Positions 3 through 13,604 of a stretch of 64,000 nucleotides of DNA are shown piece by piece. Source of the DNA: Bacteroidales bacterium (lineage in GTDB: Bacteria > Bacteroidota > Bacteroidia > Bacteroidales > Lentimicrobiaceae). The notes under the pieces are model-generated. The model did not search any database. It saw nothing but the letters and a program-made list of their open reading frames with translations, and was not told the DNA's origin. Position numbers and translations under genes: made by a program. Positions within the stretch are counted from its first letter, which is position 1. The number at the start of each line of letters is the position of its first letter. The stretch is taken from NCBI GenBank assembly GCA_024636955.1, contig JAGXGB010000048.1:124001-188000 (forward strand). The letters are read 5' to 3'.

Positions 3-1961
3 GCAGATATTTCTTCAGGCAAAGATTCTGAAACTGTAATTAATACTTTGGAAGCTGAAGCAACCTCTGATGTTGAACCAGAATCAGCTGATCAAGGTAC
101 TATCGATGATGATGATGAACCTACTGTTGAAAAGCTAAAAGCATCACACATCACCCAGATTTCACTCGAAAATTTCGATTGGGATGCTATCGGTAAGAAG
201 CATGAAAATTATTCAGCCGACGAAAGAAATAAATTAGAAGGCCTTTATGACAAGACTCTTAGCTCTATAGTAGAGCATGAAGTTATAGATGGTACTGTAG
301 TTGCTATGAATAGCCGTGAAGTTGTTGTGAACATCGGCTTCAAATCTGATGGCGTTATTCCACAATCTGAACTTAGATATAATCCAAACCTCAAGGTTGG
401 TGATTTGATTGAAGTTTATGTGGAAAGTCAGGAAGATATGGGCGGACAATTAATCCTCTCACACAAAAAGGCACGCATCCTTCGTTCATGGGAGCGCGTT
501 AACCAGGCATTCGAAAAAGAAGAAATTATTAACGGTTACGTTAAATGCCGTACTAAGGGTGGTTTAATTGTGGATGTTTTTGGTATCGAAGCTTTCTTAC
601 CAGGTTCACAAATTGATGTTAAGCCTATCCGCGATTACGATATCTATGTAGATAAAGTAATGGAATTTAAGGTTGTTAAGATTAATCAGGAGTATAAGAA
701 TGTGGTTGTTTCACATAAAGCTTTGATAGAAGACGAACTTGAACACCAGAAAGCTGATATCATCAGTAAACTGGAAAAAGGCCAGATTCTTGAAGGTACT
801 GTTAAAAACATTACTTCATACGGTGTATTCGTTGATTTAGGTGGTGTTGACGGTCTTGTTCATATCACTGACCTTTCATGGGGACGTATTAACCATCCTG
901 AAGAAATTGTACAGCTTGATCAGAAGATCAGTGTTGTTATTCTCGATTTCGACGAAAACAAAAAACGTATTGCACTTGGACTTAAACAACTTACACCTCA
1001 TCCATGGGATTCACTTGATGAAAACATCAAAGTTGGTGACCAGGTTAAAGGCCGCGTAGTTGTTATTGCTGATTACGGTGCATTTATTGAAATAGCTGCC
1101 GGTGTTGAAGGACTTATTCACGTTTCAGAAATGTCATGGTCACAGCATCTCCGCACTGCACAGGATTTCCTCAAGGTAAGTGATGAAGTGAATGCTGTTA
1201 TTCTAACACTTGACCGTGATGAGCGTAAAATGTCATTGGGTATTAAACAACTGATTCCAGATCCATGGACAGACATCCGTGAGAAGTATCCGTTGAACTC
1301 AAAGCATGTTGCTACAGTTCGTAACTTCACAAACTTCGGTATATTCGTTGAACTTGAAGAAGGTGTTGACGGATTAATCCATATATCTGATCTTTCATGG
1401 TCAAAGAAGATCAAGCATCCAGCAGAATTCACCAAGATTGGTGAGAAAATTGATGTGATTGTACTTGATGTAGATGTTGAAAACCGCAGGTTAAGCCTTG
1501 GTCACAAACAACTCGAGGAAAATCCATGGGATGTATTTGAATCAGTATTCTCAGTTGGCTCAGTTCACAAAGGAACTATAACCGGCGTTAGTGATAAGGG
1601 TGTTGTTGTAGCTTTACCTTATGGTGTTGAAGGATTCGCTCCTATTCGCCATACTGTTAAGGAAGATACAAGCTCAGCAAAAGTTGAAGAAACACTTGAG
1701 TTTAAGGTTATCGAATTCTCAAAAGAGAACAAGAAAATTATCCTTTCACACTCAAGGATATTCCAGGACGCTGTTTCTGAAAAGAACAAAGAAGCAACAG
1801 CTACCAAGGACAATGCTGAAACAACAACTAAACGTGCAGTTAAGAAGCTGAAAGATAATCTTGAGAAAACAACTCTGGGTGACCTTGAAGCACTTGCAAA
1901 TCTGAAATCCGATATGGAACAATCAGAAAAAGCTGCAAGAGACAAGAAGAAAGAAGAGTAA
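3..1961 (+). CDS. rpsA: 30S ribosomal protein S1 (5' end outside the window)
   Basis: S1 binds mRNA on the 30S subunit and promotes initiation, which matters in a lineage that lacks strong Shine-Dalgarno sites. The frame is open to the left edge, and the first usable start inside the window is only a TTG at 48, so the true start lies upstream. An acidic N-terminal tail is followed by six S1/OB repeats, starting (residues counted from the TTG) near 82, 165, 250, 335, 420 and 510. The third to fifth carry the typical GVFVDL or GIFVEL and DGLIHISDLSW signatures. The C-terminus is a Lys/Glu-rich tail. A rho-independent terminator follows within 20 bp. The assignment is secure. Confidence 0.97.
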   Translation, partial: ADISSGKDSETVINTLEAEATSDVEPESADQGTIDDDDEPTVEKLKASHITQISLENFDWDAIGKKHENYSADERNKLEGLYDKTLSSIVEHEVIDGTVVAMNSREVVVNIGFKSDGVIPQSELRYNPNLKVGDLIEVYVESQEDMGGQLILSHKKARILRSWERVNQAFEKEEIINGYVKCRTKGGLIVDVFGIEAFLPGSQIDVKPIRDYDIYVDKVMEFKVVKINQEYKNVVVSHKALIEDELEHQKADIISKLEKGQILEGTVKNITSYGVFVDLGGVDGLVHITDLSWGRINHPEEIVQLDQKISVVILDFDENKKRIALGLKQLTPHPWDSLDENIKVGDQVKGRVVVIADYGAFIEIAAGVEGLIHVSEMSWSQHLRTAQDFLKVSDEVNAVILTLDRDERKMSLGIKQLIPDPWTDIREKYPLNSKHVATVRNFTNFGIFVELEEGVDGLIHISDLSWSKKIKHPAEFTKIGEKIDVIVLDVDVENRRLSLGHKQLEENPWDVFESVFSVGSVHKGTITGVSDKGVVVALPYGVEGFAPIRHTVKEDTSSAKVEETLEFKVIEFSKENKKIILSHSRIFQDAVSEKNKEATATKDNAETTTKRAVKKLKDNLEKTTLGDLEALANLKSDMEQSEKAARDKKKEE

Positions 1962-1980
1962 AATCTTATTGAATATTAGC

Positions 1981-2013
1981 AAAGAAATCCCCTTTAAGGG
2001 GATTTCTTTGTTT
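1981..2013 (+). terminator. rho-independent terminator of rpsA
   Basis: A 14-nt inverted repeat (AAAGAAATCCCCTT / AAGGGGATTTCTTT) with an almost absent loop is followed by a T-rich stretch 20 bp after the rpsA stop. Confidence 0.8.
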
Positions 2014-2050
2014 AATGTATATTGTCGTTTAATAAAAAATAGAAATAATA

Positions 2051-2358
2051 TACTGTCTTAAATATAATTCATGGTAAGAGTTCTCTTTGATAATATACTG
2101 TCTTCTATTTATTTAAGGCAAGAATTCTCTTTTAAGATATACTGTCTTCTATTTATTCAAGATAAGAATTTGCTATTAAGGTGTACTGTCTTCTATTAAT
2201 TCAAGGCAAGAAATTGCTATAAGATTTACTGTCTTCTATTAATTCAAGGCAAGAATTTGCTTTTAAGATTTACTGTCTTCTATTAATTCAAGGCAAGAAT
2301 TCGCTTTTAAGATGTACTGTCTTCTATTAATTCAATGCAAGAATTTGCTTTTAAGATG
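2051..2358. repeat. 44-bp direct repeat, seven copies
   Basis: Seven head-to-tail units begin with TACTGTCTT at 2051, 2096, 2140, 2184, 2227, 2271 and 2315, so the period is 43-45 bp. The consensus continues with CTATTAATTCAAGGCAAGAA and then TTTGCTTTTAAGAT. The right-hand copies are the most alike and the leftmost is the most diverged. The array fills almost the entire 418-bp gap between rpsA and rnz and stops about 20 bp before the rnz start. I see no ORF, stem or transposon feature in it. Confidence 0.9.
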
Positions 2359-2379
2359 TAACTATTAAATTTTAAACCA

Positions 2380-3294
2380 ATGAAGGAATTTTCTGTAACC
2401 GTGCTTGGTAGCAGCGCTGCAGTTGCAACAGATGACAGGAATTTAACTTCGCACTTGATCAATCACTGCAACAGTTTGTTTCTGATTGATTGTGGCGAAG
2501 GAACTCAATTCAGATTGCGTGAGTTAAGGGTTAGGACTAACAGGATAAAGAATATTTTTATTAGCCATTTGCATGGTGACCATTTTTTTGGATTGATCGG
2601 ACTGTTATCAACCATGCACCTCATGCGCAGAACAGAAGAGATTAAGGTGTATGGCCCTCCTTTACTTGAAGATATCATCAGACTTCAACTCAAAGCATCT
2701 GAAACTTCATTGTCCTACAGTCTGATATTTATAGAGACACAATCGGAAGGTGAAGAGGTAATTTATGATGATGGCAGACTTACCGTAAGTTCAATCCCAC
2801 TAAAACACCGCATACCAACCACGGGGTTTATCTTCAGGGAGAAATTACAACCCAGGCATATAAATAAAGAAGCCGTTGATAGGTTTGGTGTGCCAATTAT
2901 ATTTTATTCGTCTTTAACAAAGGGAATGGACTTTATTGCTGATGATGGTGAGATTATCCCTAATGGAGTACTTACAAACCCACCTGATATTCCACGCACT
3001 TATGCTTTTATCTCTGATACAGTTTATAATGAAGATATTGTTGATAGTATAATGGGTTGCGATTTACTTTATCATGAGTCGACATTCAGTCATGATTTAC
3101 AACATGCGGCACACGATAAGATGCATTCCACAAATGTGCAGGCAGCTACAATTGCAAAGCTTGCAGGAGCTAAAAGGCTTATGCTGGGGCACTTCTCAGC
3201 CAGGTATGATGATTTGAGTGCTATGCTGAGCGAGGCTAAAAAAACTTTCAATGAAACAATAGTTGCTGAAGAAGGTGTTGCAATATATATTTAA
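2380..3294 (+). CDS. rnz: Ribonuclease Z (tRNA 3' endonuclease)
   Basis: This is a metallo-beta-lactamase-fold endonuclease that cuts tRNA precursors 3' of the discriminator base. The zinc motif HxHxDH is at residues 63-68 (SHLHGDH), with the supporting histidines later in KHRIPTTG, FISDT and LGHFSARY. The length of 304 residues is normal for the short bacterial enzyme. It fits the local genome: of the three tRNA genes in this window two do not encode CCA, so 3' trimming followed by CCA addition is needed. The start is an ATG without an evident ribosome binding site. Confidence 0.96.
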   Translation: MKEFSVTVLGSSAAVATDDRNLTSHLINHCNSLFLIDCGEGTQFRLRELRVRTNRIKNIFISHLHGDHFFGLIGLLSTMHLMRRTEEIKVYGPPLLEDIIRLQLKASETSLSYSLIFIETQSEGEEVIYDDGRLTVSSIPLKHRIPTTGFIFREKLQPRHINKEAVDRFGVPIIFYSSLTKGMDFIADDGEIIPNGVLTNPPDIPRTYAFISDTVYNEDIVDSIMGCDLLYHESTFSHDLQHAAHDKMHSTNVQAATIAKLAGAKRLMLGHFSARYDDLSAMLSEAKKTFNETIVAEEGVAIYI

Positions 3295-3338
3295 TCTTCA
3301 ACTTAACTAAGCCCCGTGCTTTGTATATCTACCAAACC

Positions 3339-3404
3339 AGACTCTATTTAATACAATGCCATATTCTATACAATACAATACCACGCTCTATTTAATAGTT
3401 AATA
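3339..3404. repeat. 22-bp direct repeat, three copies
   Basis: Three adjacent degenerate 22-bp units start at 3339, 3361 and 3383 (core CTCTATTTAATACAATGCC), 45 bp after the rnz stop. Nothing else is visible in the rnz-histidine kinase gap except a nine-base duplication (AGATGATT) near 3411-3428. Confidence 0.7.
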
Positions 3405-3505
3405 TATCAAAGATGATTAGATGATTAGCTACTACAGAGTAAGCCATGTATATTTGACCTTCAAAAAGATCACTCTATGATTCTTAAGCATAGCACTTTA
3501 TAACT

Positions 3506-5263
3506 TTAACCCGCAGCTTGCTTGTATAATAAACTCGAGAATAGTTTTATCAGAGTTTTCTTATCATAGGGCTTGGCAACATAGTGCGAACATCCATTGG
3601 AAAGCAGCCTTTCCCTGTCACCTTGCATAGTATAACCAGTTACTGCAATAATAGGTACATCACTATAATGCTCAATGGCCCTGATTTCCTGTGCTATATG
3701 AATACCATTAGGCCCTGCACCAAGATTTATATCCATGAGCACTGCATCATACTTTTTAGCCTTAATTTTAGTCATAGCAATATACCCATTCTCAGCCATA
3801 TCAATATTGCAAATTTCCCTTAAATACAGGGCTGCGAGTCGGCGGTTGATCTCATTATCCTCTACAATAAGTACTTCTGGTACATTGCCCCGTCCTAGTC
3901 GTATAGTGTTGATTGGTTCAACTTTTTCAATCTCAGGTGCTATAACATCATTCACTACTGCAGCTGATGGGAGTGAAATATAAAAATCAGAACCTTTTTC
4001 AGGAACGCTTTCAACCCACACCTTTGCATTTAATAAACGTGAAATTTTGATAACCAAAGAGAGGCCAAGTCCACTACCTTCAAAGGTTCTTGATAACCCC
4101 TCACTTACCTGCCTGAATTCTTCAAAAATAAGTTTGTGGTGCTGCGGTGCAATGCCAATTCCAGTGTCACTGATTTTAATCACTACATCTGAAGTATCTC
4201 TAAGTCCGGAATATGCACTGATTGATATTCCTCCATCTATGGTAAACTTAATTGCATTATCAATTAAATGGTGGAGTAATTGACCGAGAAGCTTATCATC
4301 AGCAATTACATTTATTTGAGGAGGCAAGGCTGTGCGGATATATAATCCTTTATCACTGGCAATGGAGTAGGCATTTCGCAGAAGACCCATAAAGGTGTTC
4401 TTTACATTTACTGCTTTCAATGCTAAACTTGTGCGATTGGATTCAATTGCCGACAGGTCCATTATAGAATTTAAGGTTGTCATTAGCCTGTTAGCTGATT
4501 TGTATATGGTGGAAGCCATATTTTTCAACCGGTTATCATCCAATTCATCATGAAGTATTTCAGAAAAACCCAGGATTCCTGTCATTGGAGTCCTTAACTC
4601 ATGACTCATATTTGCAAGCAATGAAGATTTTAGTCTGCTGGACTCTTCAGCTTCATTTTTTGCCTTAATTAATGCCTCTTCATGTTGAGACCTGTCCTCA
4701 TCACTTTGCCTGTTTGCAACAGATGTAGTGCTTTGAAGAATGTTGCTATATAATTCAGTCTGGTAACTTAAAATAGAGCATGAGTAAATAAATCTGTCAT
4801 AATCAGCAAATTCTGCCTGATTAGCTGCTTCATTAGTCTGAGAAACCGTATAGCCATTTCGTGCAGCAAACTGTCTTATTTTATCTTCATTGCCATTTCT
4901 TGAAGTAAGCTGACTAATTATGAGCTTATATGCTGCGCTATTATTCAACTTCATGCTGATTAGACTAATTTCATGTCCACAGTTGCAGCTTTTAAACAAT
5001 GGCCTTCCACCATCACTAGTTGATGTTAGCATGGTTGCAATGGTTGCATCACAACATTGCCAAAGCTTCCCTGATTTTGTACCTGGAATTAAATACGGCG
5101 ACTGAAAAACAGGTTCTGTAAAAAGCTTTTCAAGGGGTGAAATTATTAGTATAGTAGCCTTTAAGGTTTTGCCGTATACTCTCTGTATTTTCTGAATTGT
5201 ATCTTTATGAAGGATATCACTTTCTTCAACTGATGCTGCCTTTACAAAAGATGTATTAATCAT
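3506..5263 (-). CDS. Hybrid sensor histidine kinase with C-terminal receiver
   Basis: This 585-residue protein has no predicted membrane segment and so is probably a cytoplasmic sensor. The N-terminal 180 residues form a sensory region with the paired cysteines CC (70-71) and CxC (93-95), reminiscent of PocR-type ligand-binding domains, although that match is only by eye. A coiled coil (190-215) leads into HisKA with the phospho-acceptor H221 in MSHELRTP. Then come a HATPase domain (N box HHLIDNAIKF, G boxes DTGIGI and GSGLGLS) and a receiver domain (VLIVEDNEINR, VLMDINLG, K in VAKPYDK). There is no DNA-binding output and no partner regulator beside it. A lone receiver protein is encoded at 45.8 kb, but no link is shown. 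Confidence 0.9.
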   Translation of the reverse strand: MINTSFVKAASVEESDILHKDTIQKIQRVYGKTLKATILIISPLEKLFTEPVFQSPYLIPGTKSGKLWQCCDATIATMLTSTSDGGRPLFKSCNCGHEISLISMKLNNSAAYKLIISQLTSRNGNEDKIRQFAARNGYTVSQTNEAANQAEFADYDRFIYSCSILSYQTELYSNILQSTTSVANRQSDEDRSQHEEALIKAKNEAEESSRLKSSLLANMSHELRTPMTGILGFSEILHDELDDNRLKNMASTIYKSANRLMTTLNSIMDLSAIESNRTSLALKAVNVKNTFMGLLRNAYSIASDKGLYIRTALPPQINVIADDKLLGQLLHHLIDNAIKFTIDGGISISAYSGLRDTSDVVIKISDTGIGIAPQHHKLIFEEFRQVSEGLSRTFEGSGLGLSLVIKISRLLNAKVWVESVPEKGSDFYISLPSAAVVNDVIAPEIEKVEPINTIRLGRGNVPEVLIVEDNEINRRLAALYLREICNIDMAENGYIAMTKIKAKKYDAVLMDINLGAGPNGIHIAQEIRAIEHYSDVPIIAVTGYTMQGDRERLLSNGCSHYVAKPYDKKTLIKLFSSLLYKQAAG

Positions 5264-6342: not shown

Positions 6343-9276
6343 CTATTTTTGCTGCAATGATTCCCAAAGGATTTCAATTGGGTGTAATGCATCTCTGCCG
6401 GTGCCATCTTTTATTTGATGACGGCAGCTTGTTCCTGGTGCAGCAATGGTTACATCAATACTTGTTGACCTCACTTCCGGAAAAAGTATTAATTCGCCAA
6501 TCTTCATTGAAACATCATAATGCTCCGTTTCAAATCCAAATGAGCCAGCCATACCACAACAGCCTGATTTAATTTCTTCAACCTGATAACCTTTAGGCAA
6601 TGATAGCATTTGTTTTGTAGAAGCTGTTGAGGCAAGTGCTTTTTGATGGCAATGCCCATGAAGCTTTATCTTTCTGGGGATGCCTTTAAAGCTTTCGCTG
6701 GAAATTCGTCCAGCCGCAACTTCACGCATAATGAAGTCGTCAAACAGATAAACATTTCCAGCTAATTGCTTTGCTTTTTCTTTTGTTTCTCCCATTGTTA
6801 AGTCAATATACTCATCCTTAAATGTGAGTATAGCCGATGGTTCAATGCCAATAAGTGGTGACTCACTGGTGATTACTGATGAGAGTATTTCAACATTATA
6901 ATTTGCAAGTTTTTTAGCTATTCTTACTAATCCTTTGCTCAGGAAGGTACGTCCACTTTCCTTATGATCAGGAATTTCAACCTTATAGCCCAGTTTATTC
7001 AGAATTTTGACGGCACTGATACCAATTGCAACATCATTATAATTGGTAAACTCGTCAGCAAATAAATATACAATACGTCCGGATGATTGATGCTTTCGAT
7101 GTTTTGCGAACCAACTCTTTAAGGTAGTTTTATATAATAGAGGCAATGAGCGCTTATGAGAGAATCCAATGGCTTTTTGAAAAACACCTGAAAGAAAATT
7201 GTTCTTTACAAACCAATTGTAGAAAGAAGGCATCAAAGCTCCAATTCTATTGAAAGCAGTTATGTTTGCAATAATCCATGATCTAAGTGGTGTTCCGTTT
7301 GCATCATAATAATGCTGCAAAAACTCAGCTTTGTATTTTGCCATATCCACATTTGACGGACACTCGGCTTTGCACCCTTTACATGAGATACATAAATCCA
7401 TTACCTCAAGTATTTCCTTATGGTCAAATGGGTTTTTCTTATCGCTTCGGGTAAGCAATTCACGTAAAATATTTGCACGAGCCCTTGTTGTATCTCTTTC
7501 ATCACGAGTAGCCTGATAGCTTGGGCACATAGTTCCGGCAAATTGCTCTGATTTCCTGCAATCACCTGAACCATTGCACTGTTCTGCTGCCCTCACAATA
7601 CCCATGTTTTCAGAAAAATCAAACACAGTTTCTATTTCACGTGTTTTTTGTCCGGCTTCATACCTCAAAGAAGAATTCATTGCCGGTGTTTCAGTTATCT
7701 TGCCTGCATTAAAAATACCTTTTGGATCAAAAGTATGCTTAACGCCTTTCAGTAATTGATAAACATGATCGCCCAGCATTAGCGGTATGAATTCACCCCT
7801 CAACCGGCCATCACCATGTTCTCCACTTAATGAGCCGCGGTATTTTTTGACAAGCCGGGCTGATTCAAGGGCAACAGTATGAAATAGCTCAATATCTTTG
7901 GGATCTTTCAAATCAAGCATTGGACGTAAGTGGAGTTCTCCGGTAGCAATATGCGCATAATAAACACATTCTAGGTCAAGCTTAATAAGCATCGCCTTGA
8001 ACTCTTCCATATACAATGGCAATGCTTCGGGCAGTACTGCAGTGTCTTCAATTACAGCAACAGGTTTTTTATCGCCTTTAATATTTGATAAAAGCCCAAG
8101 CCCGGCTTTCCTAAGAGCCCAAACTTTATTGATATCAGTGCCAAAGATTACTGGGAAATGGTAACCATAACCATTAATGAGCATACTCTGCTCAAGAGAA
8201 TTTGCAGCTTCAAGAATTTCCTCTTTGGTATTGAAAGCAAATTCCACAACCAATATAGCAGCAGGCTCACCACTGATGAAAAAGCGGTTCTTCCTTTGTT
8301 CGATATTGTCTTTTGTCCGTTCAACTATGAACTGATCAATCAATTCAATTGCTACCGGTTTATGTTTTAACGCTATAAGATTTGCTTTAAAGGCTTCCTC
8401 TAAAGAGCGGCAGTGTATACAAACAAGTGCCTTTTCTCTGGGTGGGAGAGGAACAAGATTTAGTTTTATTTCAGTAGAGAATGCAAGAGTACCTTCTGAA
8501 CCTGCAAGTATTTTACAAAGGTTGAAGTGTTTATTAGATTCGCTAAATGGCTCTGAATCAAGTAACAAATCAAGGGCATATCCAGTGTTTCTTCTTTCCA
8601 GACGTGGATCAGGGTAGTTGTTAATAATCTCTGCTTTATTTTGTTGATCAATTAGAATATCCCGAAAGTGAGCGTATATTTTACCTTCCAGCGTATCCTG
8701 TTCACATTTCATCTTTAATTCCTCAGTGCCCAAAGATTTAAATGTTGTCTTTGAGCCATCACTGAGGAGTGCTGTGATTTCGAGTGTATGATCACGTGTG
8801 CTTCCATATACCAGTGAGTGTGAGCCGCAGGCATTATTGCCAACCATCCCGCCTATCATACATCTATTAGAAGTGGACGTTTCAGGTCCGAAGAATAGAC
8901 CAGTTGGTAGAAGTGCGTTGTTGAGTTCATCAAGAACAACGCCCGGCTCCACTCTTACCCAATGCTCATCCTGATTAATTTCAAGAATGCGGTTCATATA
9001 CTTCGACACATCAACAATAATTCCGTTACCAACTACCTGACCTGCCAATGAAGTACCTGCAGTTCTGGGGATTAATGTAACCTTCATTTTATTGGCAAAG
9101 TGGATCAGTGTGATAATATCTGACTCATCCTTAGGGCGGGCAACGGCTATAGGTAATTCCCTATATGCAGATGCATCAGTTGCATACAGTATTCTCATGG
9201 TTTCCCCTATGAAAATATCTCCTTTGAGTTTATTCGATAGTTCGTTCCACTTATTTACCGGTATAACAGTTGGCAT
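6343..9276 (-). CDS. FAD/Fe-S 2-hydroxyacid dehydrogenase (YdiJ/GlcD-GlpC fusion type)
   Basis: This 977-residue fusion is organised like YdiJ, the D-2-hydroxyglutarate dehydrogenase, and related D-lactate/glycolate oxidoreductases. A FAD-binding-4 domain lies at roughly 35-180 (PRTAGTSLAGQ, GGMVGNNACGSHS), and a FAD-oxidase C-terminal domain at about 250-530 (SGEHGDGRLRGEF). An iron-sulfur region follows (CNGSGDC; CISCKGCKAECPSNVD). It ends in a CCG/heterodisulfide-reductase-like domain (HGHCHQKAL, SGCCGMAGSFG). Electrons would pass from the flavin through the clusters to the quinone pool or another carrier. The DUF1338 gene just upstream on the same strand makes D-2-hydroxyglutarate an attractive substrate. 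A terminator separates the two genes, so this one probably has its own promoter. Substrate specificity cannot be read from the sequence. Confidence 0.88.
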   Translation of the reverse strand: MPTVIPVNKWNELSNKLKGDIFIGETMRILYATDASAYRELPIAVARPKDESDIITLIHFANKMKVTLIPRTAGTSLAGQVVGNGIIVDVSKYMNRILEINQDEHWVRVEPGVVLDELNNALLPTGLFFGPETSTSNRCMIGGMVGNNACGSHSLVYGSTRDHTLEITALLSDGSKTTFKSLGTEELKMKCEQDTLEGKIYAHFRDILIDQQNKAEIINNYPDPRLERRNTGYALDLLLDSEPFSESNKHFNLCKILAGSEGTLAFSTEIKLNLVPLPPREKALVCIHCRSLEEAFKANLIALKHKPVAIELIDQFIVERTKDNIEQRKNRFFISGEPAAILVVEFAFNTKEEILEAANSLEQSMLINGYGYHFPVIFGTDINKVWALRKAGLGLLSNIKGDKKPVAVIEDTAVLPEALPLYMEEFKAMLIKLDLECVYYAHIATGELHLRPMLDLKDPKDIELFHTVALESARLVKKYRGSLSGEHGDGRLRGEFIPLMLGDHVYQLLKGVKHTFDPKGIFNAGKITETPAMNSSLRYEAGQKTREIETVFDFSENMGIVRAAEQCNGSGDCRKSEQFAGTMCPSYQATRDERDTTRARANILRELLTRSDKKNPFDHKEILEVMDLCISCKGCKAECPSNVDMAKYKAEFLQHYYDANGTPLRSWIIANITAFNRIGALMPSFYNWFVKNNFLSGVFQKAIGFSHKRSLPLLYKTTLKSWFAKHRKHQSSGRIVYLFADEFTNYNDVAIGISAVKILNKLGYKVEIPDHKESGRTFLSKGLVRIAKKLANYNVEILSSVITSESPLIGIEPSAILTFKDEYIDLTMGETKEKAKQLAGNVYLFDDFIMREVAAGRISSESFKGIPRKIKLHGHCHQKALASTASTKQMLSLPKGYQVEEIKSGCCGMAGSFGFETEHYDVSMKIGELILFPEVRSTSIDVTIAAPGTSCRHQIKDGTGRDALHPIEILWESLQQK

Positions 9277-9337
9277 AATAGTATAAAATGAGTAATGGCA
9301 AAAACTGATCCAAAGTTAGGTAAATTAAACACTACAG

Positions 9338-9373
9338 AAAAAACCGCATTCCCTGATCTAAGGAAATGCGGTC
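9338..9373 (-). terminator. rho-independent terminator of the lplA-DUF1338 unit
   Basis: Read on the minus strand, ACCGCATTTCC pairs with GGAATGCGGT (one bulged base) and is followed by six T residues. It lies about 120 bp after the DUF1338 stop and 62 bp before the dehydrogenase start. Confidence 0.7.
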
Positions 9374-9407
9374 ACTTTTATGTGAAAACAGGAATGTTTA
9401 ATTATTA

Positions 9408-9480
9408 TTACAAAATGCAGTCTATTATTGAAAACTGGAAAGCTTTATTAATGTTACAAAATGCAGACGTTTATTGATAA
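9408..9480. repeat. 46-bp-period direct repeat, two copies
   Basis: TTACAAAATGCAG recurs at 9408 and 9454, each followed by a similar TTTATTGA-AAC stretch. The pair lies directly downstream (minus strand) of the DUF1338 gene. Confidence 0.6.
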
Positions 9481-9490
9481 CAGTGATCTC

Positions 9491-10303
9491 TTAATTCCCT
9501 TTATAAAAGTTTGTGCTTTCAAATATCTTATCAGCTGACTTTGCAATAAAGCCTGAATAAAGCTTCCCATCGGTATCAGGGTATCTTATAGCAAATTCAT
9601 AGTAGCATGAAGGTACTTCGTAAGTTCCTTCAAGAAATTGAACAGGCAATTTCCCCGCCATGGTACTCGATTGTTCCAATAGTTCTTCCGGAGTGCCTTT
9701 GACCCGGCCGCCTGAATCATTAATCCGGAAGCCGTTGTCTTCAACAAACTTATTGACCGCTTCAACGCTGGTAAATTTCTTTAATCCGTTAATGCTTACT
9801 GTGAAGTGGTTTGCCCTGAAGCCGTATACATAAACCCATGCTGCATATTCTGATTCGTCTCTTAGTTTATTATACACCTCGTATGAAGGCGTTCCCCAGA
9901 GGTTACCCCTGAAAATCAAATCTCCTTTTCCGTGCAATTCAGCAGGTATCTTATCAAGGATATCTTTCACAGTCTCCTGGACAAATGGTGATAGTTCCTC
10001 AGTCCTCAACTCCGAAATAAAGACTCTGGGAGCGTCTCGGAATTCCTTATGCTCATAATGACGCGCATTCAGCTTCTTGTCTTCGAAATTATACGATTGT
10101 TTGTATTCGTACCCTGCTTCAATGAACAGCTGTGCCATCACATCAATATTCACCCTTGAGTCATTGAAAGTCCTGAATGCAATATGATCATTCAGCACTT
10201 CTTCCCCCTGAGCAATGAATAAGTCATATACTTTCTTTGCTGATGGATTCTGGGTAATATAATCTGACCACAGTTTATCGAAAATCTCTTGTGCCTGCTT
10301 CAT
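9491..10303 (-). CDS. DUF1338 protein, 2-oxoadipate dioxygenase/decarboxylase family
   Basis: DUF1338 proteins include HglS, the iron-dependent enzyme of bacterial D-lysine breakdown that converts 2-oxoadipate to D-2-hydroxyglutarate. This 270-residue version belongs to the short form. The expected ligand set is visible: H40 with R44 (HxxxR in NDHIAFRTF), H166 (RANHFTVSI) and E236 (YYEFAIRY). These would correspond to the two histidines and the glutamate that hold iron and the substrate-binding arginine. It lies 21 bp downstream of lplA, and the adjacent downstream gene encodes a YdiJ-type dehydrogenase able in principle to oxidise D-2-hydroxyglutarate. The family is clear; the substrate is inferred. 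Confidence 0.85.
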   Translation of the reverse strand: MKQAQEIFDKLWSDYITQNPSAKKVYDLFIAQGEEVLNDHIAFRTFNDSRVNIDVMAQLFIEAGYEYKQSYNFEDKKLNARHYEHKEFRDAPRVFISELRTEELSPFVQETVKDILDKIPAELHGKGDLIFRGNLWGTPSYEVYNKLRDESEYAAWVYVYGFRANHFTVSINGLKKFTSVEAVNKFVEDNGFRINDSGGRVKGTPEELLEQSSTMAGKLPVQFLEGTYEVPSCYYEFAIRYPDTDGKLYSGFIAKSADKIFESTNFYKGN

Positions 10304-10324: not shown

Positions 10325-11344
10325 TTAAACATTCATATTTTGCAAATGTTCAGCTTTTTCACCAACAAACAGAGCATGTATTACCTTGTTTATAACACTG
10401 CTAGAGAATTCATTTTTTAATTGCTCTCTTATTGTTGATTCTCTAAGCTGTGCACCCACAAGTGATGTAATCAGCCGATTTATATCGGTGGGAATGACTG
10501 GGTTGTTAGTTTCAATTAGCTCTTCTTTTGTGATGTTTTCAATGATACCGTTTCTTACTTTCACTGTTCCAAGAAAAGAAGTCTCATTTAAGCTGAACCT
10601 TGCTTTAAAGCTAAAAGGAGGGGAGTAGCCATAGTTCCATTCCCATGTACTGTATTTATCTTGCCTTAATTTGTTGATCTCGATTATATCGCTTTCAGTT
10701 AAAGTGTACATGTATGCGCCATCGTTTCCGTTTAGAATTTCAGAAATAATGTATTCGGCAAAATCCTCCATGCCCATGTGCTCCGGCAGGTAATTGCTTA
10801 GATTTGTTACATTGCTTCGTAGGGACTTCACTGCTTTATCTTCATATTGAATATCAACCGGTAAAATTGCTTTATTCAGATTTTCGAGATTGCTATTAAA
10901 TAGGATTGTGCCATGATGGATAACTTTCTGCTTATAAACATGTTCAGCGTTTCCAGAAATCTTCATTCCATTGATATACAAGCTATTCCTGTTCCCAATG
11001 ACTACATTAGCCCCTAACTTATTAATAACATCAATTATTGGCAATGTGTATTTATGGAAATCAACAAGAGAGTTTTGATCTCCTGTGCCTGTTATAGTAA
11101 AGTTTAAATTGCCATGGTCGTGATACACTGCCCCACCTCCGGATATTCGCCTGACAACATGAATTCCATTCTTATTTATAAATTCATGATTTACTTCGGC
11201 AAATGTATTCTGGTGTTTGCCAACAATTACTGAAGGATCATTACGCCAGAGCATGAATGTATCTTCATTAAAGTTTTTGAAAATATATTCTTCAGCTGCC
11301 AGATTGAAGTACGGATCAGTTTCCTTTCTTAAAATGCAACGCAT
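10325..11344 (-). CDS. lplA: Lipoate-protein ligase A
   Basis: The enzyme activates free lipoate with ATP and attaches it to lipoyl domains of 2-oxoacid dehydrogenases or GcvH. The biotin/lipoate ligase core motif RRISGGGAVYHDHGNLNFT (with a KHQN segment before it) is near residues 44-84. The catalytic lysine region is GMKISGNA, and a C-terminal accessory domain is present. The length of 339 is typical of the LplA two-domain form. It is the first gene of a short unit with the DUF1338 gene (21-bp gap). Confidence 0.94.
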   Translation of the reverse strand: MRCILRKETDPYFNLAAEEYIFKNFNEDTFMLWRNDPSVIVGKHQNTFAEVNHEFINKNGIHVVRRISGGGAVYHDHGNLNFTITGTGDQNSLVDFHKYTLPIIDVINKLGANVVIGNRNSLYINGMKISGNAEHVYKQKVIHHGTILFNSNLENLNKAILPVDIQYEDKAVKSLRSNVTNLSNYLPEHMGMEDFAEYIISEILNGNDGAYMYTLTESDIIEINKLRQDKYSTWEWNYGYSPPFSFKARFSLNETSFLGTVKVRNGIIENITKEELIETNNPVIPTDINRLITSLVGAQLRESTIREQLKNEFSSSVINKVIHALFVGEKAEHLQNMNV

Positions 11345-11456: not shown

Positions 11457-12935
11457 TTATTGTGGTTCAATCATCTGGCCTTCGGTTTGAACTGACTTTT
11501 TTGTCCATTCAGGTAATACCTCAGTCATAAATTTTTGCTTACTTGCAATTAAGGCAGGCATGTCAAGACCTATATATTCTTGCGCCTTTTGGCGGCTTGA
11601 GATGTCAGGTAATGTGATTGGAGTTTTAACACCATGGCTAATCAATACTGTATTGAGCAGAACTCTTGCTTCCTGGGCTTTTTGTATTGAAGTTCCTAAA
11701 GTACGTAAAGCTTCTACTGGTGCATGGAATCCCATTGCATTACTGGCAACTATATAATCCCAACGCCATTGTGACTGACGAATCAAAGCAAGTATCGGGG
11801 CCATTTCTTGTTCATTGGCTCCGTTGTCCCAAGCAGTTTTTGCTTCAATGTGAAGGCGGGCAAGGTTCTTCTCCGCAATACGTCGGAGTTCATAAACCTT
11901 ATCTTGCCTATCTATTACATTTGCCATTAATTTTTCTTCACTTTCACGGTGACATACAACACATGATCCTGAAATATTAGCTAAAGGACTCTGAATCTTA
12001 TGATCAGTGTATTTCATACCACCATCACGTTTGTATGGCATATGACAGTCAGCACATGCCACACCTCTATCGAAATGTACTCCTGTAGTGTATTGTTCAT
12101 AATCCGGGTGTTGTGCTTTAATCATAGGTGCTTTGCTTAACGCATGAACAAAATCCACATGTTGCGTACTGTCATAGTATGCTTCCATAGCTTCTGCACC
12201 CATTCCATTATCCCATGGGAATACCAGATATTTATCTTCTTTCGTGAAATAATACTCAACGTGACACTGTGCACAAACAAGGGAGCGCATTTCCTGATGA
12301 GTTGCTTCGGTAATATCCTTGCCTTGTCTTTCATAGGCTTCTATCAAAGCTGGTCGAGTAATGCGCAGGTTCATGGTCTTTGGGTCGTGACAGTCCTGAC
12401 AACCTATGTTGTTAACTACTTCAGATCCAAGATCCTTCCAGGTACTCTTGTAAAAAGCATCAACGCCCATTTCATTCATTAGTCGGGGAACATCTGTGCT
12501 TTTGCAAGTCCAGCATGTACCAGGTTGTGGAACATCTGTACGCAATGTTTCCCTGATATCATTGATAGCATAGTAATGGCCTCTTGATTGCTTGTATTCA
12601 CGTGAGAAAGCATAACCAGCCCATAGAACTACCATTTCAGGTTGTTCTTCAAGCGCATCACGTGTTGCACTTCCGCCATATTTGCTCCTGAAACTAGTGT
12701 CAAGCGTGTTGACGTATGACTCATATTCTCTGGGAAAATTTTCGCCCCAAACTTCATTTCTTGGCTCCCAGTCAGGTATTTCACTTACCATCTGAAAGTA
12801 AACCTTTGATTCACTTCTTCTTTCAACAATAGATGAGGCTAATAAACCAAGGACAAATACTATAATTACTGTTCCAAGAAAAATAAGCCAGGCAACCCAG
12901 GGTTTCCTCTTTGTAATTTCTGATACTGGTTCCAT
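11457..12935 (-). CDS. nrfA: Ammonia-forming cytochrome c nitrite reductase, catalytic subunit
   Basis: NrfA reduces nitrite to ammonium with six electrons on the periplasmic side. Five c-type haem sites are present: the active-site CWTCK (141-145, lysine as proximal ligand, diagnostic for NrfA) and CQDCH (179), CAQCH (221), CADCH (294) and CVVCH (325). Residues 13-35 form a hydrophobic helix that looks like an uncleaved anchor or signal. The length of 492 is normal. It lies 28 bp after nrfH, so the two form an operon. It can serve nitrite respiration or detoxification of nitrite, NO and hydroxylamine. Confidence 0.97.
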   Translation of the reverse strand: MEPVSEITKRKPWVAWLIFLGTVIIVFVLGLLASSIVERRSESKVYFQMVSEIPDWEPRNEVWGENFPREYESYVNTLDTSFRSKYGGSATRDALEEQPEMVVLWAGYAFSREYKQSRGHYYAINDIRETLRTDVPQPGTCWTCKSTDVPRLMNEMGVDAFYKSTWKDLGSEVVNNIGCQDCHDPKTMNLRITRPALIEAYERQGKDITEATHQEMRSLVCAQCHVEYYFTKEDKYLVFPWDNGMGAEAMEAYYDSTQHVDFVHALSKAPMIKAQHPDYEQYTTGVHFDRGVACADCHMPYKRDGGMKYTDHKIQSPLANISGSCVVCHRESEEKLMANVIDRQDKVYELRRIAEKNLARLHIEAKTAWDNGANEQEMAPILALIRQSQWRWDYIVASNAMGFHAPVEALRTLGTSIQKAQEARVLLNTVLISHGVKTPITLPDISSRQKAQEYIGLDMPALIASKQKFMTEVLPEWTKKSVQTEGQMIEPQ

Positions 12936-12963: not shown

Positions 12964-13563
12964 TTATTTTTTCTGATTTGGTCTGTCATCCAGAAACTTA
13001 TTCATCCAATCGGGTATGATTGATTCCATCCGAGGCACAAGGGAATAGGGAGTAGCGGCAAGACTGTTGACAGTACCATGGGGTGTTTCCCTATGGCAAT
13101 CCCAACACCTGAAGCCTGCTCCTTCCTTGTAATTTTCACCTGTAACCCTTACAATGTTTACCATGTCAATAAGGTTACGGTGACATCTAATACAATTCTC
13201 CTGAACTACGTTGATACCAGCCTGCTTTATTTGAATAACCTGTGGTTCAGCCCGGGCGGTAAATATTGTAGCATGCCTTAAGCCATCCATGGCTTTAAAG
13301 TAATAGGTTCTGAATACATTATCATGCGGAACATGGCAGTCATTGCATGTTGCAGCGGCTCTATGGCTACTGTGCATCCATGTGGCATACTGTGGATACA
13401 TTACATGGCAATTAATGCATGTTTCAGGATTATCTGATAAATACGAGTGTGCTCTTGAACTATAAACAAGGAGGATTAAAATGCCAACGATAGTACCTGA
13501 TAGGATTATGGCCGGCAAACGCCAATTATCAGGGGGGCCAAGAAATTTGATTACTTTTTTCAT
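12964..13563 (-). CDS. nrfH: Cytochrome c quinol dehydrogenase NrfH (NapC/NirT family)
   Basis: NrfH is the membrane-anchored tetrahaem protein that oxidises menaquinol and feeds electrons to NrfA. One N-terminal transmembrane helix (about residues 17-37) is followed by four haem motifs: CINCH (49), CNDCH (73), CIRCH (124) and CWDCH (153). I chose the ATG at 13563, giving 199 residues. A longer frame begins at a TTG at 13599, but that TTG is part of a TAnnTTTG promoter box and would put coding sequence on the promoter. The family start at the short cytoplasmic tail before the helix also fits. Confidence 0.95.
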   Translation of the reverse strand: MKKVIKFLGPPDNWRLPAIILSGTIVGILILLVYSSRAHSYLSDNPETCINCHVMYPQYATWMHSSHRAAATCNDCHVPHDNVFRTYYFKAMDGLRHATIFTARAEPQVIQIKQAGINVVQENCIRCHRNLIDMVNIVRVTGENYKEGAGFRCWDCHRETPHGTVNSLAATPYSLVPRMESIIPDWMNKFLDDRPNQKK

Positions 13564-13570
13564 AGTACGG

Positions 13571-13604
13571 TTTGCTTGAAACTGACACTCTTCAAGCAAA
13601 TATA
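13571..13604 (-). promoter_or_regulatory. nrfHA promoter with overlapping inverted repeat
   Basis: On the minus strand TATATTTG (13604-13597) matches the Bacteroidota -7 element TAnnTTTG. It overlaps a perfect inverted repeat TTTGCTTGAA / TTCAAGCAAA (13600-13591 and 13580-13571, 10-nt spacer) that runs into the short leader before the nrfH ATG. A dimeric regulator bound here would cover the transcription start. The regulator is unknown. Confidence 0.55.

What the first reader, a model, noticed from the sequence alone, without database searches (positions are those of the whole stretch)
6343..10303. DUF1338 enzyme next to a YdiJ-type dehydrogenase: possible 2-oxoadipate to 2-oxoglutarate route
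HglS of the DUF1338 family makes D-2-hydroxyglutarate from 2-oxoadipate, and YdiJ-type FAD/Fe-S enzymes oxidise D-2-hydroxyglutarate. The short Bacteroidota DUF1338 protein here retains the metal and arginine ligands (H40, R44, H166, E236) and sits one gene from such a dehydrogenase. This suggests lysine or 2-aminoadipate catabolism in an organism where it is not usually considered. A terminator between the genes means they are not one transcript.
Basis: partly seen in the sequence, partly recalled or inferred. Interest (0 to 1): 0.6.

Follow-up and report, generated by a model that had tools for sequence, protein, structure and literature searches.

The report
Plant-like lysine breakdown genes in Bacteroidota
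Two neighbouring genes in this Bacteroidota genome very probably carry out the last two steps of turning lysine into the central metabolite 2-oxoglutarate, the same chemistry plants use; the pair is conserved in dozens of related bacteria, and the earlier lysine-breakdown genes sit elsewhere in the same genome.

Summary
Observation confirmed. Window 9491-10303(-) encodes a 270-aa PF07063/HGLS (DUF1338) protein. The next gene, 6343-9276(-), is a 977-aa YdiJ-like FAD/Fe-S dehydrogenase. A 13-bp-stem terminator lies between them. The ligands H40, R44, H166 and E236 are identical in 89 of 89 homologues aligned. The closest solved relatives are 3LHO and rice FLO7, a proven 2-oxoadipate to 2-hydroxyglutarate enzyme. 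The dehydrogenase keeps the D-2-hydroxyglutarate carboxylate and metal residues.

The adjacency is not confined to this genome. In 40 of 71 GTDB loci with enough flank, a YdiJ-like gene lies within 2.6 kb downstream on the same strand. In another lineage the two genes are 4 bp apart. Elsewhere DUF1338 sits beside ALDH7 (2-aminoadipate-semialdehyde dehydrogenase) and a lysine/saccharopine-dehydrogenase-like gene; one MAG carries all of these in one run.

The window's own genome also encodes lysine-ketoglutarate reductase plus saccharopine dehydrogenase, ALDH7 and a cytochrome oxidase. Lysine to 2-oxoglutarate by a plant-like route is therefore well supported as inference. The 2-aminoadipate aminotransferase is unidentified and no activity has been measured. 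Individual enzymes are known; the bacterial combination and its conservation look new.

The parts
9491..10303 (-). DUF1338 / HGLS protein (270 aa), predicted 2-oxoadipate dioxygenase/decarboxylase making D-2-hydroxyglutarate
   Evidence: PF07063 106.7 bits; 3LHO 2.9e-81 and FLO7 6W1K 9.8e-39; H40/R44/H166/E236 invariant in 89 of 89
6343..9276 (-). YdiJ-like FAD / 4Fe-4S dehydrogenase (977 aa), predicted D-2-hydroxyglutarate dehydrogenase
   Evidence: Pfam domains; NCBIfam NF049975 664.5 bits, below cut-off; R389, K404, H442, H449, E486, H487 match human D2HGDH R386, K401, H434, H441, E475, H476 and are invariant with E. coli YdiJ
9342..9373 (-). intrinsic terminator between the two genes
   Evidence: 13-bp stem, 6-nt loop, T-run; MFE -23.5 kcal/mol, z -5.0; comparable hairpins after DUF1338 in close relatives L045, L046, L050
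9311..9318 (-). TAACTTTG, a possible Bacteroidota-type -7 box upstream of the dehydrogenase gene (weak)
   Evidence: read directly from the sequence; match to the TAnnTTTG consensus is from my own knowledge, not tested
10325..11344 (-). lipoate-protein ligase LplA, 21 bp upstream of DUF1338; conserved neighbour of unclear meaning
   Evidence: TIGR00545 329.7 bits against cut-off 280; upstream of DUF1338 in 31 of 71 loci with enough flank

Best explanation
The pair is the exit module of lysine/2-aminoadipate catabolism. The DUF1338 protein, an Fe(II)/O2-dependent VOC-fold enzyme, decarboxylates and hydroxylates 2-oxoadipate to D-2-hydroxyglutarate. The YdiJ-like FAD/Fe-S dehydrogenase oxidises that to 2-oxoglutarate. 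In this genome 2-oxoadipate would come from lysine through lysine-ketoglutarate reductase, saccharopine dehydrogenase, ALDH7-type 2-aminoadipate-semialdehyde dehydrogenase and an unidentified aminotransferase, which is the plant-like saccharopine route. Shown here: genes, family membership, catalytic residues, conserved neighbourhood, co-occurrence and a genome with a cytochrome oxidase. Inferred: substrates, flux, electron acceptor and the aminotransferase.
For: DUF1338 is close to FLO7, which was shown to make 2HG from 2OA (PMC7286885), and keeps all four ligands. The dehydrogenase keeps the D-2HG C1/C5-carboxylate and metal residues of human D2HGDH and of E. coli YdiJ, which is strictly D-2HG-specific. 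YdiJ-like gene within 2.6 kb downstream, same strand, in 40 of 71 loci (24 within 0.7 kb). 4-bp gap in G002. Divergent arrangement in marine Flavobacteriaceae L103, L107, L112. DUF1338 beside ALDH7 in Flavobacterium, G126 and G162. Lysine-dehydrogenase-like, ALDH7, DUF1338, SerC, YdiJ in one run in L124. Own genome: LKR and SDH overlapping by 4 nt, ALDH7 at 770 bits against cut-off 730, aa3 oxidase. Of 30 DUF1338-carrying relatives all have an LKR-like gene, 26 of them at 51-70% identity, and 22 have ALDH7.
Against: No activity data. The YdiJ-like protein is below the curated equivalog cut-off and 33% identical to E. coli YdiJ. The 2-aminoadipate aminotransferase was not found. LKR/SDH and ALDH7 lie on other contigs, not beside the pair. 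Genome G196, holding the best DUF1338 match in the 297-genome sample (64%), has no YdiJ, ALDH7 or LKR match at the thresholds used. Several clades carry DUF1338 without a YdiJ neighbour. YdiJ is much commoner than DUF1338 in the phylum (128 against 17 of 297 genomes), so it must have another role too. A terminator separates the genes here.
Confidence: 0.77

Rival explanations
1. The YdiJ-like enzyme mainly recycles D-2-hydroxyglutarate made by SerA during serine synthesis; its nearness to DUF1338 reflects a shared metabolite rather than a dedicated lysine pathway.
For: E. coli YdiJ does this (PMC9504171). A SerB-SerA fusion gene sits between DUF1338 and YdiJ in G202 and L119, and SerC sits between them in L124. 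YdiJ occurs in 128 of 297 genomes, DUF1338 in only 17.
Against: It does not explain the repeated direct DUF1338-YdiJ adjacency or the ALDH7 and lysine-dehydrogenase neighbours. The two roles are compatible.
Confidence: 0.15
2. DUF1338 acts on a different 2-oxo acid, so the pair is not lysine catabolism.
For: No short-type (about 270 aa) DUF1338 protein has a published activity that I could find; 3LHO is only labelled 'putative hydrolase'. G196 carries DUF1338 without recognisable upstream enzymes.
Against: Arg44 and the HHE triad are invariant. HglS acts only on 2-oxoadipate among seven 2-oxo acids tested, and its Arg mutant is dead (PMC7286885). ALDH7 and lysine/saccharopine dehydrogenase genes are neighbours in several lineages.
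Confidence: 0.06
3. Chance or passive neighbourhood: housekeeping genes that stayed together by descent, without functional link.
For: The LplA and NrfHA genes are also conserved neighbours in close relatives with no obvious link to lysine, so part of the order may be inherited.
Against: The partner recurs in different orders and orientations: Bacteroidales same strand, marine Flavobacteriaceae divergent, the long-type DUF1338 in G002 with a 4-bp gap, and L124 with an E. coli-type YdiJ.
Confidence: 0.05

Closest known systems
HglS, hydroxyglutarate synthase (Pseudomonas putida) with YdcJ (E. coli)
   Same: PF07063 family, HHE metal triad plus substrate arginine; in P. putida it converts 2-oxoadipate to D-2-hydroxyglutarate in lysine catabolism (PMC7286885). 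That P. putida pairs it with a YdiJ-type dehydrogenase is from memory.
   Different: HglS is longer (ligands H70, R74, H226, E294, with a V402/S403 loop) and belongs to D-lysine catabolism; here the short type is paired with saccharopine-pathway genes and lies beside the dehydrogenase gene.
FLO7 / AT1G07040 (plants)
   Same: Closest characterised sequence (136.5 bits, E 9.8e-39 to 6W1K); same ligands; works downstream of LKR/SDH and an aldehyde dehydrogenase in plants.
   Different: Chloroplast enzyme; plants finish with a different D-2HG dehydrogenase; plant LKR and SDH are one bifunctional protein, here two overlapping genes.
3LHO (Shewanella frigidimarina 'putative hydrolase')
   Same: Same short subfamily (267 aa, 2.9e-81).
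   Different: Structure only; no activity in the literature I could read.
YdiJ D-2-hydroxyglutarate dehydrogenase (E. coli, Pantoea ananatis)
   Same: FAD domain plus 4Fe-4S/GlpC-like half; the key D-2HG residues are invariant.
   Different: 33% identical; lacks an insertion of about 30 residues in the Fe-S half; scores below the NF049975 cut-off; Bacteroidota-type subfamily.
Saccharopine pathway (AASS/LKR-SDH plus ALDH7A1)
   Same: Own-genome LKR, SDH and ALDH7 match the human AASS domains and ALDH7A1.
   Different: In mammals 2-oxoadipate goes on to glutaryl-CoA; here no acyl-CoA dehydrogenase found passed the glutaryl-CoA dehydrogenase cut-off.

Membership tests
HGLS / DUF1338 (PF07063) | Pfam model above gathering cut-off | tested here: met
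   106.7 bits against 25
HGLS / DUF1338 (PF07063) | His-His-Glu metal triad and substrate arginine | tested here: met
   H40, H166, E236 and R44 align with FLO7 and are invariant in 89 of 89
HGLS / DUF1338 (PF07063) | Fe(II)/O2-dependent conversion of 2-oxoadipate to D-2-hydroxyglutarate | not testable with these tools
   needs an enzyme assay
YdiJ D-2-hydroxyglutarate dehydrogenase | NCBIfam NF049975 equivalog cut-off (1350 bits) | tested here: not met
   664.5 bits; E. coli YdiJ scores 1727.9. Therefore described as YdiJ-like, not filed as that equivalog.
YdiJ D-2-hydroxyglutarate dehydrogenase | FAD_binding_4, FAD-oxidase_C and 4Fe-4S domain architecture | tested here: met
YdiJ D-2-hydroxyglutarate dehydrogenase | residues for metal, C1- and C5-carboxylates of D-2HG | tested here: met
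   R389, K404, Y440, H442, H449, E486, H487 present; Thr390 is Leu and Asn443 is Arg here, but E. coli YdiJ also departs there (Val, Arg)
YdiJ D-2-hydroxyglutarate dehydrogenase | activity on D-2-hydroxyglutarate | not testable with these tools
   needs an enzyme assay
Saccharopine pathway of lysine catabolism | lysine-ketoglutarate reductase and saccharopine dehydrogenase in the genome | tested here: met
   G000:C26:1903-3390 and 3387-4706; matches to AASS LKR 8DDA (4.8e-71) and saccharopine reductase 1E5L (4.2e-85)
Saccharopine pathway of lysine catabolism | 2-aminoadipate-6-semialdehyde dehydrogenase (ALDH7 / NF050084) | tested here: met
   G000:C25:2736-4307, 770.3 bits against cut-off 730; alpha-aminoadipic semialdehyde dehydrogenase structures about 1e-163
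Saccharopine pathway of lysine catabolism | 2-aminoadipate aminotransferase | not tested
   no specific model used; searches exhausted; none seen beside the genes in G000 or the relatives examined
Glutaryl-CoA branch (mammalian-type fate of 2-oxoadipate) | glutaryl-CoA dehydrogenase in the genome | tested here: not met
   three acyl-CoA dehydrogenases found, best 313 bits to NF045552 against cut-off 470; genome 93% complete

The most novel reading that the evidence does not exclude
DUF1338 plus YdiJ form a portable 2-oxoadipate exit module in Bacteroidota that is joined to different entries: saccharopine (LKR/SDH) in Bacteroidales, a lysine/saccharopine-dehydrogenase-like enzyme in other lineages, and in some Flavobacterium a kinase plus PLP-lyase fusion that could feed 5-hydroxylysine (as from collagen) through 2-aminoadipate semialdehyde into 2-oxoglutarate.
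Probability: 0.4. Interest if true: 0.65.

Novelty: new variant of a known kind. Interest (0 to 1): 0.52.

Why it matters
It gives Bacteroidota a genome-supported, O2-dependent, non-ketogenic route from lysine to 2-oxoglutarate that mirrors the plant pathway, and an annotation for two otherwise vaguely named proteins. It predicts that organisms carrying the pair degrade lysine by this route only with O2, pass through D-2-hydroxyglutarate, and do not need glutaryl-CoA dehydrogenase. Some cultured Flavobacterium strains carry the genes, so the prediction is directly testable.

Tried and rejected
A kinase/PLP fusion like that of Flavobacterium was sought in the window's genome and not found; the only hit is an ornithine aminotransferase. 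The glutaryl-CoA branch was looked for: no acyl-CoA dehydrogenase passed the glutaryl-CoA dehydrogenase cut-off. The gene between DUF1338 and YdiJ in many MAGs was hoped to be the missing aminotransferase; it looks like a secreted lipoprotein hydrolase, and the one tested has no Pfam match. Neshich 2013 and Thompson 2019 are not held in the library, so prior claims about Bacteroidota could not be read. No paper found in the searches made describes this pair in Bacteroidota. Structure prediction was not run because sequence matches to solved relatives were already decisive for fold and ligands.
Full report
OBSERVATION. The window encodes, all on the minus strand, NrfH (12964-13599), NrfA (11457-12935), lipoate-protein ligase LplA (10325-11344), a 270-aa DUF1338/HGLS protein (9491-10303) and a 977-aa FAD/Fe-S dehydrogenase (6343-9276). 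The DUF1338 gene starts 21 bp after LplA and ends 214 bp before the dehydrogenase gene. A 13-bp hairpin with a T-run sits in that gap at 9373-9342 and folds far better than shuffles (z = -5.0). The genes are direct neighbours.

THE DUF1338 PROTEIN. PF07063 is matched at 106.7 bits (cut-off 25). By sequence the closest solved structures are 3LHO from Shewanella frigidimarina (267 aa, 2.9e-81) and rice FLO7 6W1K (9.8e-39). FLO7 was shown to convert 2-oxoadipate to 2-hydroxyglutarate, and HglS does so with equimolar O2, acts only on 2-oxoadipate among seven 2-oxo acids, and loses activity when its substrate arginine is removed (PMC7286885). H40, H166, E236 (metal) and R44 (substrate carboxylate) align with FLO7 and are identical in all 14 Bacteroidota homologues and in all 89 of a wider set. 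That paper states that arginine is retained in more than 99% of bacterial homologues with the triad and predicts the same activity. Step 2-oxoadipate to D-2HG: strongly inferred, not measured.

THE DEHYDROGENASE. It has the YdiJ architecture and NF049975 YdiJ as best NCBIfam hit, but at 664.5 bits against an equivalog cut-off of 1350, so I call it YdiJ-like. Aligned with E. coli YdiJ (33% identity) and Bacteroidota relatives, R389, K404, H442, H449, E486 and H487 are invariant. They match human D2HGDH R386, K401, H434, H441, E475 and H476 in order, with the same R-to-K and H-to-H spacing. K401 binds the C5 carboxylate and is replaced in D-lactate dehydrogenases and GlcD (PMC7801405). E. coli YdiJ oxidises D-2HG and none of the other acids tested (PMC9504171). 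Step D-2HG to 2-oxoglutarate: inferred.

IS THE PAIR CONSERVED? In a sample of 297 Bacteroidota genomes DUF1338 occurs in 17 and the YdiJ-like protein in 128. In G002 (a long-type DUF1338, 35% identical to the window's) the two genes are 4 bp apart on one strand; in three genomes of genus g7 (G202, G025, G246; Flavobacterium by comparison) they lie about 2.5 to 13.5 kb apart on one strand. Eighty GTDB loci of the short type were fetched. Of the 71 with at least 3 kb downstream, 40 have the YdiJ-like gene within 2.6 kb downstream on the same strand, 24 of these within 0.7 kb. LplA lies just upstream in 31 of 71 with enough upstream flank. Many gaps are only 16-70 bp, mostly without a hairpin, whereas close relatives L045, L046 and L050 carry terminator-like hairpins as the window does. 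In L103, L107 and L112 (marine Flavobacteriaceae) YdiJ is on the opposite, divergent strand with an Lrp-type regulator gene between. For a single gene placed at random in a 4-Mb genome, landing in a given 2.6-kb same-strand interval has a probability well under 0.1% (my estimate). Loci are related, so they are not 40 independent events, but there are several distinct arrangements. Some clades carry DUF1338 without this neighbour.

WHICH PATHWAY? In Flavobacterium DUF1338 is followed by an ALDH7-type gene (NF050084 L-piperidine-6-carboxylate dehydrogenase, 826.9 bits, cut-off 730; loci). G126 has DUF1338 then ALDH7, and G162 has saccharopine/lysine-dehydrogenase-like, DUF1338, ALDH7. L124, a MAG labelled Burkholderiales, has lysine-dehydrogenase-like, ALDH7, DUF1338, SerC and an E. 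coli-type YdiJ in one co-directional run with gaps of 3-45 bp. L117, a MAG labelled Oligoflexia, has a lysine-dehydrogenase-like match, ALDH7 and DUF1338. The substrate of the lysine-dehydrogenase-like proteins is inferred from the Pfam saccharopine dehydrogenase domains only.

THE WINDOW'S OWN GENOME (G000; 3.2 Mb, 93% complete). One DUF1338 gene. On contig C26, lysine-ketoglutarate reductase (1903-3390; human AASS LKR domain 8DDA, 4.8e-71) overlaps saccharopine dehydrogenase (3387-4706; 1E5L 4.2e-85) by 4 nt. On contig C25 lies ALDH7 (2736-4307; 770.3 bits). An aa3-type oxidase is present (674.4 bits against 670.75), so the O2 that DUF1338 needs can be available. No acyl-CoA dehydrogenase found passed the glutaryl-CoA dehydrogenase model. 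Among 30 DUF1338-carrying relatives, all have an LKR-like gene (26 at 51-70% identity, 4 at 31-34%) and 22 have ALDH7; in the phylum sample matches of at least 40% identity to this LKR are rare, about 20 of 297 genomes, and other than G000 those lack DUF1338. Relatedness inflates the first figure.

GAPS AND COUNTER-EVIDENCE. No 2-aminoadipate aminotransferase was assigned. LKR/SDH and ALDH7 are unlinked to the pair in G000. G196 carries a 64%-identical DUF1338 but no YdiJ, ALDH7 or LKR match at the thresholds used. YdiJ has another role, clearing D-2HG made by SerA (PMC9504171), and SerA or SerC genes do appear beside it in G202, L119 and L124. Both roles can coexist because both deliver D-2HG.

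NOVELTY. Each enzyme type and the plant pathway are known. HglS with a YdiJ-type dehydrogenase in P. putida is known to me from memory only. What appears new, within the literature I could search, is the conserved DUF1338-YdiJ neighbourhood in Bacteroidota and its coupling to a saccharopine entry. I rate this a new variant of a known kind.

Noticed in passing
L022:13157-15454, L023:14000-16297, L123 (Flavobacterium): A 765-aa APH-kinase plus class-III aminotransferase fusion lies between DUF1338/ALDH7 and YdiJ. Its PLP half is closest to ethanolamine-phosphate phospho-lyase 6TOR (475 bits). In this context it could be a hydroxylysine kinase / phosphohydroxylysine phospho-lyase.
   Followed up: partly
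window 10325-11344 and upstream of DUF1338 in 31 of 71 loci: Lipoate-protein ligase is a conserved upstream neighbour of DUF1338 in Bacteroidales; NrfHA lies next to it in close relatives L046, L049-L051. No functional reason is obvious.
   Followed up: partly
L063, L070, L074, L078, L080, L085, L090, L091, L095-L097, L100: A 409-500-aa lipoprotein with an esterase/hydrolase-like look sits between DUF1338 and YdiJ in one clade of MAGs; the one tested (L074) has no Pfam match.
   Followed up: partly
L021:9534-11447 and L119:12307-14199: A SerB-SerA fusion protein gene lies between DUF1338 and YdiJ: two D-2-hydroxyglutarate producers beside the predicted consumer.
   Followed up: partly
L022:5449-5919, L023:1558-2028, L103, L107, L112: A divergent Lrp/AsnC-family regulator gene faces DUF1338 in Flavobacteriaceae; a candidate lysine or 2-aminoadipate sensor.
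   Followed up: no
L134, L136, L141, L142 and own-genome L040: ALDH7 is repeatedly next to a molybdate/tungstate-binding-like lipoprotein gene and, in relatives, a ModE-like regulator gene (names by eye, not tested).
   Followed up: no
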